Source of the DNA: Bacteroidota bacterium
GTDB taxonomy: Bacteria; Bacteroidota; Bacteroidia; AKYH767-A; OLB10
Assembly: GCA_025352785.1 (NCBI GenBank)
Contig: JANXSD010000129.1
Location: 1-33,775 of the forward strand
Direction of reading: 5' to 3'
Length of the DNA stretch: 33,775 bases
In this document: piece after piece, positions 5,110 to 27,269 of the stretch
How the letters are laid out: every line of letters begins with the position of its first letter
Position numbering within the stretch: the stretch's first letter is position 1
Notes under the pieces: model-generated
Told to the model about the DNA's origin: nothing
Seen by the model: only the letters and a program-made list of their open reading frames with translations
Database searches by the model: none
Translations under genes and position numbers: made by a program

Positions 5110-5652
5110 TTAAAATCTAGATTCCGTATTCTTAAAAGAAGTTAGTTCAAGATCTTTTCCAGAGACGATAGGGTTTTGAGTTCCCCAATTTATATTTAAA
5201 TCTGGATCATTCCAGAGTATTCCACTTTCAGAATCTTTATGGTAAACATTACTGCATTTGTAAAGAAACAGCGTATCATCCGACAAAGATAAAAAACCAT
5301 GAGCAAATCCAGGAGGTATCCAGAACATCTCATTCGAATCTGCAGTAATATCAATACTTATATATTTCCCAAATGTTGGCGATTGTTTACGAATATCAAC
5401 TGCAATATCTCGTACAGCCCCTCTAAGAACACGTACTAGTTTTCCTTGATCAAATGGTGGGTGTTGAAAATGAAGACCTCTAAGTACATTTTTAGATGAG
5501 CTAGATTGATTATCCTGAACGAATTTTACATCTAACCCGAATTTACTGAAAACAGCTTCATTATAAGATTCAAAAAAGTAACCACGTTCATCGTGAAAAA
5601 TTCTAGGTTTAATCAATAAGGGACCTTCAATATCAAATTTAGTAATTTCCAT
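5110..5652 (-). CDS. rfbC: dTDP-4-dehydrorhamnose 3,5-epimerase
   Basis: A 180-residue cupin epimerase of the dTDP-L-rhamnose pathway, converting dTDP-4-keto-6-deoxyglucose to the rhamnose-configured ketosugar. FHDERGYFFESYN (19-31), the NVLRGLHFQ segment with catalytic H61, GKLVRVLRGAVRDIAVDIR at about 70-88, PPGFAHGF (113-120) and the conserved Tyr131 are all as in RmlC. It starts 3 bases after the kinase stop. The partner enzymes RfbA, RfbB and RfbD are not in the window. Either they are encoded elsewhere, or the product feeds another deoxysugar. Confidence 0.95.
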   Translation of the reverse strand: MEITKFDIEGPLLIKPRIFHDERGYFFESYNEAVFSKFGLDVKFVQDNQSSSSKNVLRGLHFQHPPFDQGKLVRVLRGAVRDIAVDIRKQSPTFGKYISIDITADSNEMFWIPPGFAHGFLSLSDDTLFLYKCSNVYHKDSESGILWNDPDLNINWGTQNPIVSGKDLELTSFKNTESRF

Positions 5653-5655
5653 AAG

Positions 5656-8088
5656 CTATACATCTCTACGCAAGATCACATCAATAACACGTTTATATAA
5701 TGGTCTTTGTTTTTCATCTTCATCATAATAGCCGTATCCATAACTATAGCCGTAACCATAGCCATAACCATAACTATAACCGTAACCATAACCATATTTC
5801 AATCGCGACATTTCAATACCATTTAAAATGATAGAGAGGTTGGATACTTTATTCTCGGAGATTAGTTTATTTATTTGGCTAATAAACATTTTACGAGAAT
5901 AATTTGCACGAAGTATATATATAGGGTAGTCGGCTTTTTGCATCATAGGAATTCCATCACTTACAATTCCTACTGGAGGTAAATCGATGATGATGATGTC
6001 ATATTTAGATTTTAAAAAATTTAATAATTCATCCATTCTAGGATTGATAATTAATTCGGCTGGATTAGGAGGAATTGGACCTGCTGTAATAAAATCTAAG
6101 TTTGCTAGTGAGCTATGAATAATACAATCTTCTGCTACATCTTTTCCGATGAGTAAAGTACTTATGCCATGATTATTCTCTACGTTAAAACCAAGATGAA
6201 TTTTTGGTTTACGCATATCAAGATCGATGATGACAACTTTTTTTCCTGAAAAGGCAATAACACCTGCTAAATTAATTGCGTTGAAAGTTTTACCTTCTCC
6301 TGAAATTGTTGACGTTACAGCAATAATTTTTGAATCTTTTTCATTAGAGATAAATTGAAGATTAGTTCTGATAGAACGGAAGGCTTCTGAAATAACTGAT
6401 TTCGGGTTTTTATCAACAAGCAATTGGGAGACTGGAATCTCTCTTTTATATTTAGGTATTATTCCCAGTAATGCAGCATCTGTATATTGACCAATTTCTT
6501 CGAGTGCATTAATTTCATTGTACAATAAATAACGTGTAATAATTAAAATAAAACTTGCAAGGAAGCCCACCATTATGCAAGCACTTAAAATTAAAGATCG
6601 GTTTGGAGATACAGGAGGTGAATCATAACGCGCTTCTTGTAAAATAATATGTTGTGAAACAAATCCTGCTCTTGCAATGGAAAATTCAGCTTTTTTTTCT
6701 AGTAGCAAAGAATAAAATTTTTCATTGATATCAAATAAACGTTTTAGTCTTCCAAATTCAGCTTCTTGACCAGGTAGTTCACCAAATTGTTTATCGTTTA
6801 TTCCTAATTGATTTTGTATTTGTGATTTTTTAAGTCTTAATGCAGCTTCTTCATTCGCTATAGTTCGAACGATAATGGATTGTTGATTTTTAATACGGAT
6901 TTCAACGGATTTATAAACTTCACTATTTTCTGTTGCCTGAATTCTAATTTGATCTTGTGAATCAATTAGCTCTTGCAATTTAGAAATTTGATTAATTAAT
7001 AAATTATCACTTGACCTTCCATAAAGTGAAATAAGGAATCTGCCAACATCATTATTCTCTTTTACATCTAATTTAATTTTATCGTAAAATGTTAGTTCAT
7101 TTTCAATAATTAACATTTGACTTTGTAATTGATTGAACTTTTCCCTTACTTCTCCAATAGCAATTTCAGGGCTAATAATTTTATTTTTCTTTTTAAATAT
7201 TTCTATAGAAGTTTCAGAGTTACTCAATTCATTATCGATCCGTAAAATAGTATTATCAATAAAATCGAGAACTTTGTTAGCACTTTCAGAACTTTTTTCA
7301 ACATCATAAAGACTAAATTCAGAAGCTATTGCATTTACGATATCAGCACCTTTTAAAAGGTTCTGTTGACGCATTTTTATTTGCACTGTCCTTGCTTCGG
7401 GATTAAGTGCAACTACCTGTAAATTTTTTATAACATCTTGTGAAATAGTATTTAATCTATTTAAGGTAAAATAATAGGCATCCTTACTGATATCTTTTTG
7501 TACTTGTGCAATTTCATTATAATTATTAATCGTGACCTTTAAATTGCATTCTGGTAAAGTGATCCATTTGCCAAGGAGATAAGTCCCAGTTCTATATTCA
7601 CCATTGTGCGGTAACATATAACTAATAATTACTGATTTTTGATCAGCAAAATCAATCATGATTGGCACATCACAAATTTGTGAATCACGAATAGAATACT
7701 CCACTTTAAACGGTGAAAGTTTATAAAGTTCGTTAACTAAAACAGCACCTTTTGCATAATAACTAATTTGTAGAGGCAGTTTAGCGATTGCTCTTTCAAC
7801 AATAACTTTGGAGCTAATCAACTCCATATTTGCGGCTAGTTCGCTTATATCTTTATTGTTTAACAAAGCGGTATTAATTCCTAATACGTTTTCCGCATTG
7901 TTTTCACTTGAAAAACGCATTACAGTAGCTGGCTCGTAAATAGGAGCTGTATATCGTAAAATTAAAAACGCAATCAAAACGGATATCAACATAAATAAAG
8001 CAAACCATAGCAGATTCTTACCAGCTATGGTTACCATTAATTTAAAATCAAAATCCTCGTTTATAGGGGATACCTTTTTTTTAGGCAT
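5656..8088 (-). CDS. wzc: Wzc-like polysaccharide co-polymerase / bacterial tyrosine kinase with Tyr-Gly tail
   Basis: An 810-residue inner-membrane BY-kinase. Transmembrane segment 1 is about 26-45 and segment 2 about 499-520. Between them lie the Wzz domain and a long coiled-coil periplasmic region (about 280-480), with PPVSPNRS just before segment 2 as in the GNVR/Wzz family. The cytosolic kinase has Walker A SGEGKT (596-601), Walker A' VVIIDLDMRKP around D622/D624, and Walker B IIIIDLPP (698-705). The C-terminal autophosphorylation cluster is extraordinary: 13 tyrosines in residues 765-788, alternating with Gly or Ser, before an acidic and then basic end. In the Wzc model, cycling of this tail controls polymer length and export with Wza. 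It lies 36 bases after the Wza-like gene and 3 bases before rfbC. No partner phosphatase is in the window. Confidence 0.93.
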   Translation of the reverse strand: MPKKKVSPINEDFDFKLMVTIAGKNLLWFALFMLISVLIAFLILRYTAPIYEPATVMRFSSENNAENVLGINTALLNNKDISELAANMELISSKVIVERAIAKLPLQISYYAKGAVLVNELYKLSPFKVEYSIRDSQICDVPIMIDFADQKSVIISYMLPHNGEYRTGTYLLGKWITLPECNLKVTINNYNEIAQVQKDISKDAYYFTLNRLNTISQDVIKNLQVVALNPEARTVQIKMRQQNLLKGADIVNAIASEFSLYDVEKSSESANKVLDFIDNTILRIDNELSNSETSIEIFKKKNKIISPEIAIGEVREKFNQLQSQMLIIENELTFYDKIKLDVKENNDVGRFLISLYGRSSDNLLINQISKLQELIDSQDQIRIQATENSEVYKSVEIRIKNQQSIIVRTIANEEAALRLKKSQIQNQLGINDKQFGELPGQEAEFGRLKRLFDINEKFYSLLLEKKAEFSIARAGFVSQHIILQEARYDSPPVSPNRSLILSACIMVGFLASFILIITRYLLYNEINALEEIGQYTDAALLGIIPKYKREIPVSQLLVDKNPKSVISEAFRSIRTNLQFISNEKDSKIIAVTSTISGEGKTFNAINLAGVIAFSGKKVVIIDLDMRKPKIHLGFNVENNHGISTLLIGKDVAEDCIIHSSLANLDFITAGPIPPNPAELIINPRMDELLNFLKSKYDIIIIDLPPVGIVSDGIPMMQKADYPIYILRANYSRKMFISQINKLISENKVSNLSIILNGIEMSRLKYGYGYGYSYGYGYGYGYSYGYGYYDEDEKQRPLYKRVIDVILRRDV
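5731..5790 (-). repeat. two imperfect 30-bp tandem units encoding the kinase Tyr-Gly tail
   Basis: 5731-5760 and 5761-5790 are adjacent 30-base units that match at 27 of 30 positions. They are themselves built from 6-base units such as CCATAA, CCGTAA and CTATAG (plus strand). Each 6-base unit encodes Tyr plus Gly or Ser on the minus strand, so gain or loss of units keeps the frame and changes only the number of tyrosines. Confidence 0.85.
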
Positions 8089-8124: not shown

Positions 8125-8895
8125 TTATTTTTTAATATTATTTGCAATATTATATATCAAGGCAATACTAGTTATAATCCCTACGATAGGAGTAAGTCGA
8201 GTAAAGAATTCTTGAGAATATTGCGGGATCGCTTCTACGTAAATAATATCATTAGCTTGTAAAAGCATATTACTTTGTTGCATCCCAACAATAGTTGATA
8301 AATCGATCATCATTACTTTAGGGTTTCTTAAATCACCACGTATTAATTTTATATTATAAGCTTTACCAGTATTAGTAATTCCACCTGCTAATGCTAATGC
8401 TTCAATAAGTGTTGTATTTTCATTTTCAATACTTACAACTTTTCCTGAACCTCCAGTTCCTGGAAATACTAAAACTCTACGATTAGTAACTTTTAAGATG
8501 ACAAACGGTTTATTGTAAAATGTAGCGTACTGTTGTTCTAGCATTTTTTCAGCATCGCGAAGAGTAAGTCCTACCACTTTTATTTTACCAATGATAGGTA
8601 GTTTTACTTGACCATCAGGTTCTACCAAAAATGGAGTACTAATATTTGAGGAAACAGCTGTAGCCACTCCAACATTATTCGATACTGAAGTTGTTAAATC
8701 AACTAACTTAAAACCATCATTGGTATAAATAGAAAATCCAATGATATCATTGGCCGCGATACGATATTCAACATTTCCAATCGTTTGGTCCGTAGCGTAT
8801 TGATAATTTTTTGGAACTTTAAACATTACGCTCGGATTAATTGAACACGAGCCCAACATAAGTAATCCGCATAGCAGAACAAGAATCCGCTTCAT
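8125..8895 (-). CDS. wza: Wza-like polysaccharide export outer-membrane lipoprotein
   Basis: A 256-residue polysaccharide biosynthesis/export protein. I start it at the ATG at 8895, which gives MKRILVLLCGLLMLGSC, a lipoprotein signal with lipobox LGS-C17. A longer frame from 8931 would bury this signal and would overlap the promoter-like box at 8929-8936. The mature part has the Poly_export pattern (YRIAANDIIGFSIYTN near 45-60, then VEPDGQVKLPIIGKIKVVGLT), followed by an SLBB-like domain around 135-215. A C-terminal hydrophobic segment (about 231-250) is the likely outer-membrane helix. It should form the export channel matching the Wzc-like kinase encoded just downstream. Confidence 0.92.
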   Translation of the reverse strand: MKRILVLLCGLLMLGSCSINPSVMFKVPKNYQYATDQTIGNVEYRIAANDIIGFSIYTNDGFKLVDLTTSVSNNVGVATAVSSNISTPFLVEPDGQVKLPIIGKIKVVGLTLRDAEKMLEQQYATFYNKPFVILKVTNRRVLVFPGTGGSGKVVSIENENTTLIEALALAGGITNTGKAYNIKLIRGDLRNPKVMMIDLSTIVGMQQSNMLLQANDIIYVEAIPQYSQEFFTRLTPIVGIITSIALIYNIANNIKK

Positions 8896-8928
8896 ATAAA
8901 TGAATATTAAGTTAATAAGATGTTGGGG

Positions 8929-8936
8929 CAAAAGTA
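8929..8936 (-). promoter_or_regulatory. putative -7 box for the wza-wzc-rfbC-wecA operon
   Basis: On the minus strand this reads TACTTTTG, a full match to the Bacteroidota -7 consensus TAnnTTTG, about 33 bases before the wza ATG. No convincing TTG lies at the -33 position, so this is a half-supported promoter. Confidence 0.45.
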
Positions 8937-8969: not shown

Positions 8970-10157
8970 CTAGGTTTTCAGAAGTAGATTATACAAATTC
9001 CGCATATCACTTACCAGACGAGTATAAGTAAAGTGTTTTATGGCAAAATTTGGCCCAACTTCTGCCATACTTAATCGAAGTGATTCGTCCTCTAATAGCT
9101 TTTTCAAGTTTTTAGTGAATGCAGGTAGATCGTCTGAATCACTAAGTAAGGCTGTTTCCCCAGGTATTACAGCATTTGTTAGTCCGCCAACGTTCGTACT
9201 TACTATTGGTTTTCCCGCAGCTTGCGCCTCTATCAGACTAACAGGCGTACCTTCATTAAATGAAGTGAGTGCAATAATATCTAAACCTGCCATCGCCCAA
9301 TCAATATCTTTAATCCACGAGGTAAAAGTTAATGTAGCATTATCATCTTTATATTCTGGTGTATTAAAAATAATTCCCGATTCGTTGCATAACGATTCAA
9401 GCTTCATTCTGTCTTCTCCATCACCAATTATAAATGCATGGCTCTTGCCTTGATATTGATGAAAAATATTTTTCCAAGCATTGATAAATAAAGCATGATT
9501 CTTTATTGGAACTAAACGACCAATAATTCCAACAGCTAATGTATTTTCCGATAATTCATATTTTTTTCTAAAGTCAGCTCGTTTTGATTCTTTATTTATT
9601 GTAAATTTTTCTAAATCAAAACCAAGAGGGATGATATGTGTTTTACTGCTTCCGCAAACGTTATAAATCTCACACAAATCCTTTTTTTGCTCTTCACTAA
9701 TGGCGATAATCCCAGTACTCATTGATGCTAAAACTTTTTCGATACCAATAAAAACTTTTGTTTTCAAAGGACTAAAATAACTATGAAATACATGACCATG
9801 AAAAGTATGAATGATTACAGGTACATTATTATTCCAAGCAGCAATTCTGCCTAATGTACCAGCTTTTGCAGCGTGTGTATGAACAATATCAGGTTTAAAT
9901 TCTTTAATGATTTTTGTAATTTGTTGATATGCATTTCGGTCATTTTTAAAATTTATCTCGCGTTGCATATTGCTGATATAAATAGGTTTTATGTTCATCG
10001 ATTCCACTATGAATTCCGAACTTTCTTCCGAGTCATCTTTCATACCAGCAACTAACATTGTTTCGAATTCTGGAGCGAGATATTTTGTTAGATACGCAGC
10101 ATTATAAGTAGGGCCACCTAAATTTAATCTATTAATTATTCGGAGTACGCGAGGCAT
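8970..10157 (-). CDS. GT4 family glycosyltransferase (GT-B fold)
   Basis: A 395-residue retaining glycosyltransferase. The N-terminal domain has RIINRLNLGGPTYNA with the glycine-rich acceptor-side loop, PDIVHTHAAKAGTLGR near 89-104, and HTFHGHVF near 117-124. The C-terminal donor domain has VGIIGRLVPIKNH near 209-221, and the EX7E motif as E302 and E310 within NEGTPVSLIEAQAAGKP. The donor and acceptor sugars cannot be read from sequence. It sits 3 bases downstream of asnB and is probably co-transcribed with it. The neighbouring Wza/Wzc/WecA genes point to a role in building an exported polysaccharide. No signal or membrane helix was seen, so it is probably cytosolic or peripheral. Confidence 0.9.
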   Translation of the reverse strand: MPRVLRIINRLNLGGPTYNAAYLTKYLAPEFETMLVAGMKDDSEESSEFIVESMNIKPIYISNMQREINFKNDRNAYQQITKIIKEFKPDIVHTHAAKAGTLGRIAAWNNNVPVIIHTFHGHVFHSYFSPLKTKVFIGIEKVLASMSTGIIAISEEQKKDLCEIYNVCGSSKTHIIPLGFDLEKFTINKESKRADFRKKYELSENTLAVGIIGRLVPIKNHALFINAWKNIFHQYQGKSHAFIIGDGEDRMKLESLCNESGIIFNTPEYKDDNATLTFTSWIKDIDWAMAGLDIIALTSFNEGTPVSLIEAQAAGKPIVSTNVGGLTNAVIPGETALLSDSDDLPAFTKNLKKLLEDESLRLSMAEVGPNFAIKHFTYTRLVSDMRNLYNLLLKT

Positions 10158-26898: not shown

Positions 26899-26933
26899 AA
26901 TTCTTAATTCTTAATTCTTAATTTTTAATTCTT
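26899..26933 (+). repeat. five tandem heptamers (AATTCTT)n upstream of rpmB
   Basis: Five consecutive 7-base units, four exact AATTCTT and the fourth AATTTTT, end 5 bases before the likely -7 box of rpmB. The unit length is not a multiple of helical turn or codon size. A change in copy number would alter promoter upstream spacing. Confidence 0.8.
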
Positions 26934-26973: not shown

Positions 26974-27207
26974 ATGTCTCAGATCTGTGATTTAACAGGA
27001 AAGCACGCTATCAAGGGTCACCGCGTTAGCCACTCTAATCATAAAACAAACCGTAGATTCAATCCGAATTTGCAAACAAAGAGGTTTTATATGCCTGAAA
27101 CAGGTGAATGGATTACTTTAAAAGTAAGTACTTCAGCACTTCGTACCATCAATAAGATCGGTATTACTGAAGCTATCACCCGAGCAATCGTAAAAGGCAA
27201 ACTCTAA
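26974..27207 (+). CDS. rpmB: 50S ribosomal protein bL28
   Basis: A 77-residue large-subunit protein with the L28 pattern. MSQICDLTGKHAIKGHRVSHSN opens the chain, RRFNPNLQTKRFYMPETGEW follows near 28-47, and VSTSALRTINKIGI near 51-64. The length is normal for Bacteroidota. A single cysteine is left at position 5, so no zinc site is expected. It starts the ribosomal block, but rpmG is separated from it here by the M24 aminopeptidase gene. Confidence 0.96.
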   Translation: MSQICDLTGKHAIKGHRVSHSNHKTNRRFNPNLQTKRFYMPETGEWITLKVSTSALRTINKIGITEAITRAIVKGKL

Positions 27208-27269
27208 TATATCGGGGTAATTCCTGATTGAAGAGGGCCGGTAATCTGATCATTGGTTATTTTTACACA

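What the first reader, a model, noticed from the sequence alone, without database searches (positions are those of the whole stretch)
5725..5796. Tyrosine-kinase tail made of alternating Tyr-Gly, encoded by slippage-prone hexamer repeats
Residues 765-788 of the Wzc-like kinase contain 13 tyrosines alternating with Gly or Ser. The DNA is a near-perfect tandem of 30-base units (27/30 identity) built from 6-base units, so copy number can change without frameshift. Wzc-type tails control polysaccharide length through phosphorylation. A length-variable Tyr-Gly tail would give a simple genetic way to tune capsule or exopolysaccharide output. Such a regular Tyr-Gly array is not what E. coli-type Wzc tails look like.
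Basis: partly seen in the sequence, partly recalled or inferred. Interest (0 to 1): 0.55.

Follow-up and report, generated by a model that had tools for sequence, protein, structure and literature searches.

The report
Fixed-length Tyr-Gly tail on polysaccharide kinase
A bacterial enzyme that helps build the cell's sugar coat ends in a strict tyrosine-glycine track of fixed length; it looks like a long version of the known phosphorylation ratchet of such enzymes and not like a length-changing genetic switch.

Summary
The kinase is a Wzc/PCP-2a type BY-kinase in an exopolysaccharide cluster. The slippage idea fails for this gene. Ten genomes (three genera) at 55-92% protein identity carry the same 25-residue tail on ten different DNA sequences; it is the longest invariant run in their alignment, and its synonymous codons differ as often as elsewhere. 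The longest perfect hexamer run here is two units, and the 27/30 repeat is no more than the peptide demands. A second tyrosine-glycine-tailed kinase in the same genomes does change length between congeners. All 51 orthologues whose tail I read, from 34 genera, have a long Y-x-Y chain. Best reading: a lineage-fixed, extended version of the published Wzc Y-x-Y phosphorylation ratchet (3 Tyr in E. coli K30, 12 here). One element of the E. coli ratchet, pocket residue E675, is Phe in 51 of 51. Phosphorylation is untested.

The parts
5656..8088 (-). Wzc/PCP-2a type BY-kinase, 810 aa
   Evidence: Pfam AAA_31 and GNVR over cut-off; NCBIfam TIGR01007 164.5 bits, cut-off 108.05; Wzc structure 7nhr E 3.7e-50
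5725..5796 (-). Tyr-Gly tail, residues 765-788, 12-Tyr Y-x-Y chain plus Tyr 788
6286..6300 (-). Walker A GEGKT, residues 597-601
   Evidence: Lys 600 in 51 of 51 orthologues
6211..6225 (-). Walker A' DLDMR, residues 622-626 (DxDxR)
   Evidence: D622, D624, R626 in 51 of 51 orthologues
5974..5997 (-). Walker B IIIIDLPP, residues 698-705
   Evidence: D702, P704 and P705 in 51 of 51 orthologues
6367..6387 (-). EX2RX2R motif, residues 568-574
   Evidence: E568, R571, R574 in 51 of 51 orthologues; its role at the ring interface is recalled
5884..5886 (-). Phe 735, aligned with pocket residue E675 of K30 Wzc
   Evidence: Phe in 51 of 51 orthologues; no gap in this stretch of the alignment to K30 Wzc
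8125..8931 (-). Wza-like polysaccharide export protein, directly upstream
   Evidence: Pfam Poly_export and SLBB_2; NCBIfam export families, all under their cut-offs
8970..10157 (-). glycosyltransferase of the same cluster
   Evidence: Pfam
5110..5652 (-). dTDP-sugar isomerase-like (RmlC type), directly downstream
   Evidence: Pfam PF00908
3967..5091 (-). glycosyl transferase family 4 (WecA type) of the same cluster
   Evidence: Pfam PF00953

Best explanation
The tail is a fixed-length autophosphorylation track of a Wzc-type (PCP-2a) tyrosine autokinase. In the kinase ring each subunit's tail threads into the neighbour's active site. As published for E. coli Wzc, the Tyr two places N-terminal of the one being phosphorylated waits in a pocket and moves in next, so phosphorylation runs C to N in Y-x-Y steps and gradually loosens the ring that controls the polysaccharide polymerase and exporter; a phosphatase resets it. 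Here the Y-x-Y chain is unbroken over 12 Tyr instead of 3, with small residues (Gly, Ser) between. Length and sequence are held by selection on the protein; the DNA repeat is a by-product of coding Tyr-Gly. Shown: kinase family, intact catalytic motifs, exopolysaccharide gene context, tail conservation and constant length in the nearest relatives. Inferred: phosphorylation, its order, ring assembly and effect on polymer.
For: Same 25-residue tail in the ten genomes compared (one of g1, three of g2, six of g6), 10 distinct DNAs, longest invariant run of their alignment (next: Walker A block, 19); codons at identical residues differ in 0.50 of tail comparisons and 0.54 elsewhere (Gly 0.62 and 0.63, Tyr 0.43 and 0.42). 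All 51 orthologues whose tail was read, from 34 genera, have a Y-x-Y chain of 6-15 Tyr, and 48 of 51 hold Y[G/F]YY followed by D/E/S and an acidic residue in their last 60 residues, like the ...YGYSYY end of K30 Wzc. Residues between Tyr: Gly 434, Ser 29, Asn 10, Thr 7, others 7. Walker A Lys, DxDxR, Walker B D..P and EX2RX2R complete in 51 of 51. In the five genera with both kinds of tailed kinase, length is constant in this kinase in 5 of 5 and variable in the paralogue in 5 of 5; on trees within the family, 3 changes over length 7.32 against 9 over 5.52. The genome has two LMW-PTP family genes and one PHP (CpsB/CapC) gene. Ratchet model: PMC11986026 (passages and Discussion), PMC8285477 (passages). 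In the same phylum, P. gingivalis Ptk1 is reported to autophosphorylate 6 Tyr in a 16-residue cluster, and its deletion to abolish extracellular polysaccharide secretion (PMC8863745, passages).
Against: E675 of the K30 tyrosine pocket, proposed there to exclude phosphotyrosine, is Phe in 51 of 51 orthologues, and S679 is Ile/Leu/Val; the D28-K701 pair was not shown to be kept (K701 aligns with Ser 761; D28 not examined). E. coli rings fall apart after four phosphorylations, so 12 sites are more than that model needs. Outside the closest relatives chain length does differ: equal in 27 of 65 pairs at 70-80% core identity and 46 of 125 at 60-70%. No phosphatase gene was seen among the window ORFs that were scanned (20 of the 36 listed). 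The structure prediction failed (mean pLDDT 42) and gives no geometry.
Confidence: 0.7

Rival explanations
1. One reading: the repeat is a contingency-like locus whose copy number changes by slippage without frameshift and so tunes polysaccharide output.
For: In-frame hexamer units; chain length differs between more distant relatives (6-15); one orthologue, L064, has nine identical TATGGT units in a row (P 0.003 against codon shuffles); the paralogue's tail changes by one or two units between congeners at 91-95% identity (L075, L078, L080); tails of other kinases of the class also differ by units between congeners (one of five in g45; 6, 6, 7 and 5, 5, 8 in two sets of g47); in 2 of 10 genomes the two 30-base halves are more alike than codon shuffling gives (P 0.006 and 0.008).
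Against: Identical length and sequence in ten genomes with different codons; 29 of 33 same-genus pairs equal; longest perfect hexamer run is two in the window and at most two in 63 of 71 tails; adjacent identical hexamers are fewer than in codon shuffles over 71 tails (73 against 95.2 +/- 7.9).
Confidence: 0.08
2. The Tyr-Gly/Ser tail is mainly an adhesive low-complexity segment that clusters kinase rings, like the [G/S]Y[G/S] repeats of FUS-type proteins (recalled), phosphorylation dissolving the clusters.
For: Composition almost only Tyr, Gly, Ser; chain length differs between families.
Against: Letter-for-letter conservation with fixed Ser positions over ten genomes is more than a composition-driven role needs; strict Y-x-Y register and YY-acid end match the kinase-tail model.
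Confidence: 0.1
3. The many Tyr act as a bulk phosphate store: only the number of phosphates matters and Y-x-Y spacing is incidental.
For: In E. coli no single Tyr is essential (PMC8285477, passages).
Against: All 51 orthologues keep an alternating chain of at least 6; in K30 Wzc adding one Y-x-Y step (N711Y) changed tail order, phosphorylation and capsule level in a mutant background (PMC11986026, Discussion).
Confidence: 0.12

Closest known systems
E. coli K30 Wzc (PCP-2a BY-kinase) and its Y-x-Y ratchet tail, PMC11986026 and PMC8285477
   Same: Profile match over both halves (7nhr, profile positions 30-328 and 416-777); Walker A, A', B; Tyr-rich C-terminus ending in YxYY; Wza-like gene beside it in the window
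   Different: Y-x-Y chain 12 Tyr against 3; Gly/Ser spacer throughout; pocket E675 replaced by Phe; an acidic stretch and then a basic one after the last Tyr
Porphyromonas gingivalis Ptk1, PMC8863745 and PMC4082711
   Same: BY-kinase of the same phylum, beside a wza-like gene, with a Tyr cluster reported as autophosphorylated and needed for extracellular polysaccharide (passages)
   Different: Six phosphorylated Tyr in a 16-residue region are reported; its sequence was not compared here
Second Tyr-Gly-tailed kinase of the same genome (G000 C172:26357-28630, type B)
   Same: BY-kinase with a 10-Tyr Y-x-Y chain ending YGYYEED
   Different: 31% identity to the window protein; Walker A' lacks its first Asp in 20 of 20 type B; tail length varies between congeners

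Membership tests
BY-kinase / PCP-2a (Wzc) family | Walker A, DxDxR Walker A', extended Walker B | tested here: met
   Complete in the window protein and in 51 of 51 orthologues; motif definitions in PMC5260027 (passages)
BY-kinase / PCP-2a (Wzc) family | Family profile over curated cut-off | tested here: met
   TIGR01007 164.5 bits, cut-off 108.05; PF13807 34.6, cut-off 27.7; PF13614 53.6, cut-off 27. The E. coli-specific equivalog models are far under their cut-offs
BY-kinase / PCP-2a (Wzc) family | C-terminal tyrosine cluster | tested here: met
   13 Tyr in residues 765-788
BY-kinase / PCP-2a (Wzc) family | Polysaccharide export neighbourhood (wza) | tested here: met
   Poly_export ORF 8125-8931 directly upstream; ORFs of similar size and order flank the kinase in L017-L020 (by position and size, not by family scan)
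BY-kinase / PCP-2a (Wzc) family | Tyrosine autophosphorylation and octamer cycling | not testable with these tools
   Needs protein work
K30 Wzc Y-x-Y ratchet | Consecutive Y-x-Y steps at the C-terminus | tested here: met
   12-Tyr chain; 6-15 in 51 of 51 orthologues
K30 Wzc Y-x-Y ratchet | Acidic residue (E675) in the tyrosine pocket | tested here: not met
   Phe in 51 of 51 orthologues, His in 19 of 20 type B; by sequence alignment only
K30 Wzc Y-x-Y ratchet | D28-K701 ion pair | tested here: inconclusive
   K701 aligns with Ser 761 in the window protein; R762 and K764 lie close; D28 was not examined
Slippage contingency locus | Long perfect tandem run | tested here: not met
   Longest perfect hexamer run is two units
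Slippage contingency locus | Length differs between close relatives | tested here: not met
   29 of 33 same-genus pairs equal; no two strains of one species were available

The most novel reading that the evidence does not exclude
Bacteroidota have evolved a long counting ratchet: a 12-step Y-x-Y track with a hydrophobic (Phe) pocket instead of the acidic E. coli one, so that many more than four sequential phosphorylations occur before the ring opens, and the number of steps, fixed by lineage and different between paralogues in one cell, sets how long each polysaccharide is polymerised.
Probability: 0.22. Interest if true: 0.7.

Novelty: new variant of a known kind. Interest (0 to 1): 0.45.

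Why it matters
In the papers I saw, the phosphorylation intermediates behind the ratchet model come from E. coli K30 Wzc, which has a three-Tyr Y-x-Y chain. Tails that are idealised, unbroken and of lineage-fixed length give a natural series (6 to 15 Tyr) in which step number, phosphorylation order, ring stability and polymer length can be compared. They also show that the tail can be the most conserved stretch of such a kinase. By titles and starts of abstracts, none of my ten paper searches of the held library listed a paper on a Tyr-Gly repeat tail in Bacteroidota kinases; the string YGYGYGY was found in five papers whose titles concern other subjects. Most papers of subscription journals are not held.

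Tried and rejected
Slippage as main explanation: rejected for this gene. The anti-slippage reading (codons chosen to break hexamers) was tested and kept only as suggestive. All 71 tails: 73 adjacent identical hexamers against 95.2 +/- 7.9 (2 of 500 shuffles as low); type A (51): 49 against 67.5 +/- 6.9 (0 of 500); type B (20): 24 against 27.8 +/- 4.4, P 0.22. With one tail per genus and type (41) it is 45 against 52.8 +/- 5.7, P 0.08 by codon shuffle and 0.008 by unit shuffle; without L064, 36 against 48.2, P 0.022. In the shifted phase the codon-shuffle result is not significant in any set (P 0.09 to 0.38).

Assembly artefact: unlikely, since the array is 72 bases and the same peptide appears in ten genomes with different DNA.

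Structure prediction with a five-row alignment failed (mean pLDDT 42.4, pTM 0.27), so no fold search was run. Rows dropped: of 97 loci with a kinase ORF, L017-L020 are identical to L022, L023, L028 and L021 and were counted once, leaving 93; 71 have a chain of six or more (51 type A, 20 type B) and entered the codon tests; the other 22 (16 type C, 5 type D, and L049, cut by a contig end before the tail) did not. L055, kept, runs into unread bases after its chain. Of the 61 genomes, 52 gave a type A locus (L049 included), 7 gave only more distant matches and 2 none. Not every listed match was fetched, and the list was capped. Pairs with 150 or fewer shared core positions were left out. Type A/B/C/D are my labels from similarity and tail, not a published scheme. 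A Walker A pattern in the script was written too strictly; its 'no-WalkerA' flags are not used.

Full report
What is there. ORF 5656-8088 on the minus strand encodes 810 aa. Residues 765-788, at 5725-5796, read YGYGYGYSYGYGYGYGYSYGYGYY: 13 Tyr, 12 of them in one unbroken Y-x-Y chain. Tandem Repeats Finder sees 5738-5796 as 9.8 hexamer copies at 77%. The stated 27 of 30 identity between the two 30-base halves is exact.

What gene it is. Pfam finds AAA_31 and GNVR over cut-off, NCBIfam the polysaccharide tyrosine autokinase domain TIGR01007 over cut-off, and the best solved structures are E. coli Wzc, matched in both the N-terminal/periplasmic and the kinase part. The gene lies in an exopolysaccharide cluster: Poly_export (Wza-like) and a glycosyltransferase upstream, an RmlC-type isomerase and a family 4 glycosyltransferase downstream. 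In the four named relatives L017-L020 ORFs of like size and order surround the kinase. Their records are titled Bacteroidota, Bacteroidetes or Bacteroidia bacterium, metagenome assemblies; I take the window's class to be Bacteroidia from these titles. The own genome holds four full-length kinases of this kind, two LMW-PTP family genes and one PHP-type (CpsB/CapC) gene, all on other contigs.

Is it length-variable? In ten genomes (one of genus g1, three of g2, six of g6) the 25 residues KYGYGYGYSYGYGYGYGYSYGYGYY are identical, while the proteins are 55-92% identical and all ten tail DNAs differ. These ten were chosen because they share the tail; other members of the family differ by one or two steps or by spacer residues (chain 11-14). 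In the ten, the tail is the longest invariant run: 25 of 25 columns against 114 of 178 in residues 586-763, 44 of 61 in 525-585, 122 of 524 in 1-524 and 1 of 22 after the tail. Among identical residues, codons differ in 560 of 1125 tail comparisons and 12185 of 22366 others. So the DNA has drifted freely under a frozen peptide and has not been rehomogenised. Same-genus pairs keep the chain length in 29 of 33 cases. By core identity, equal length is found in 19 of 21 pairs at 80% and above, 27 of 65 at 70-80%, 46 of 125 at 60-70%, 68 of 268 at 50-60% and 46 of 796 below 50%, so length does evolve, slowly.

A built-in contrast. The second Tyr-Gly kinase (type B) keeps its length in only 11 of 29 same-genus pairs, for example 11, 12 and 13 at 91-95% identity. 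In the five genera in which both were compared, type A is constant in five and type B variable in five. On trees built without the tails, type A within the family needs 3 changes over total length 7.32 (22 rows), type B 9 over 5.52 (20 rows) (quick search). Unit gain and loss is thus possible in these tails and rarer in the window's gene. The clearest sign of slippage is an orthologue in another family, L064, with nine identical TATGGT units and 15 Y-x-Y Tyr. Among other kinases of the class, four of five g45 tails have nine GY units and one has eight, and two sets of three in g47 read 6, 6, 7 and 5, 5, 8.

Is the DNA repeat itself special? No. With synonymous codons shuffled inside the tail, the window shows 1 adjacent identical hexamer pair against 1.24 expected and 27 of 30 against 25.5 (P 0.23). 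In two of the ten genomes (L027, L028) the halves are more alike than expected (P below 0.01), which may reflect old duplication. Over 71 tails identical neighbours are fewer than expected, which would fit selection against slippage, but the effect weakens when one tail per genus is used and I do not rest on it.

How widespread. In a search of 61 genomes 59 had a homologue. All 51 type A orthologues whose tail was read, from 34 genera, have a chain of 6-15. A DNA pattern for YGYGYGYGY occurs in 56 of 296 genomes drawn over the phylum: 38 of 73 in the class (own genome included) and 18 of 223 outside it; the backward control pattern occurs in 4 of 296 (my tallies of its rows). Of the 30 hits fetched there, 29, the window among them, follow a kinase sequence (ORF before the array matches the tail-less window protein at E 1e-10 or better) and lie within 47 residues of the stop; of 17 further stretches 16 do, one of them outside the class (L143, E 3.8e-51). 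Only part of the matches was listed and fetched.

How it most likely works. For E. coli K30 Wzc the published structures show the tail in the neighbour's active site, phosphorylation from C to N, the Tyr at i-2 held in a pocket, and ring loss after four phosphates (PMC8285477, passages; PMC11986026, passages and Discussion). The K30 chain is Y713-Y715-Y717 and then breaks; adding a Tyr at 711 ordered the tail and restored capsule in a mutant background. The Bacteroidota tail looks like that ratchet made continuous: constant Y-x-Y register, small spacers, YY-acid end. P. gingivalis Ptk1 gives precedent for autophosphorylation of the Tyr cluster and loss of polysaccharide in the phylum (PMC8863745, passages). 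The catalytic motifs are complete in 51 of 51. Phosphorylation, order and ring cycling are inferred.

What does not fit. The acidic pocket residue E675 is Phe in all 51 orthologues and His in 19 of 20 type B, and twelve sites exceed the four that E. coli needs. Either the pocket works by size and hydrophobicity, or the ratchet differs in this phylum. The predicted model was too poor to help.

Verdict. A member of the BY-kinase/PCP-2a family with a tail variant that I did not find described; the regular array is real, conserved and probably functional; the length-switch reading is not supported for this gene.

Noticed in passing
window 26899-26933: Five tandem copies of the heptamer AATTCTT (92% match) in the stretch just upstream of an ORF at about 26974-27208 that looks like ribosomal protein L28 (read by eye).
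   Followed up: no
G000 C172:26357-28630 (L015): Second Tyr-Gly-tailed kinase; the first Asp of Walker A' is replaced by Gly or Ser in 20 of 20 type B relatives, although the long tail is kept.
   Followed up: partly
G000 C1:15778-18039 (L013) and relatives L105-L108: Kinase group without tyrosine tail (ends ...GYGG[GA]YY[AK]) in which Walker A' reads DxDxH in 5 of 5; loss of the Arg and of the tail occur together.
   Followed up: partly
L064 (G050 C9): Orthologous tail with nine identical TATGGT hexamers in a row and 15 Y-x-Y Tyr, a sign of recent repeat expansion in this kinase.
   Followed up: partly
window 5725-5796 and orthologues: Ser or Thr recurs at one spacer near the C-end (YSYGYGYY, YSYGYGYGYY, YTYGYGYGYY) in 17 of the 22 family tails listed; role unknown.
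   Followed up: no
G000 C135:1-2600 (L016): A fifth GNVR-bearing ORF (24.3 bits, under the cut-off) cut off by the contig end within its Walker A region.
   Followed up: no
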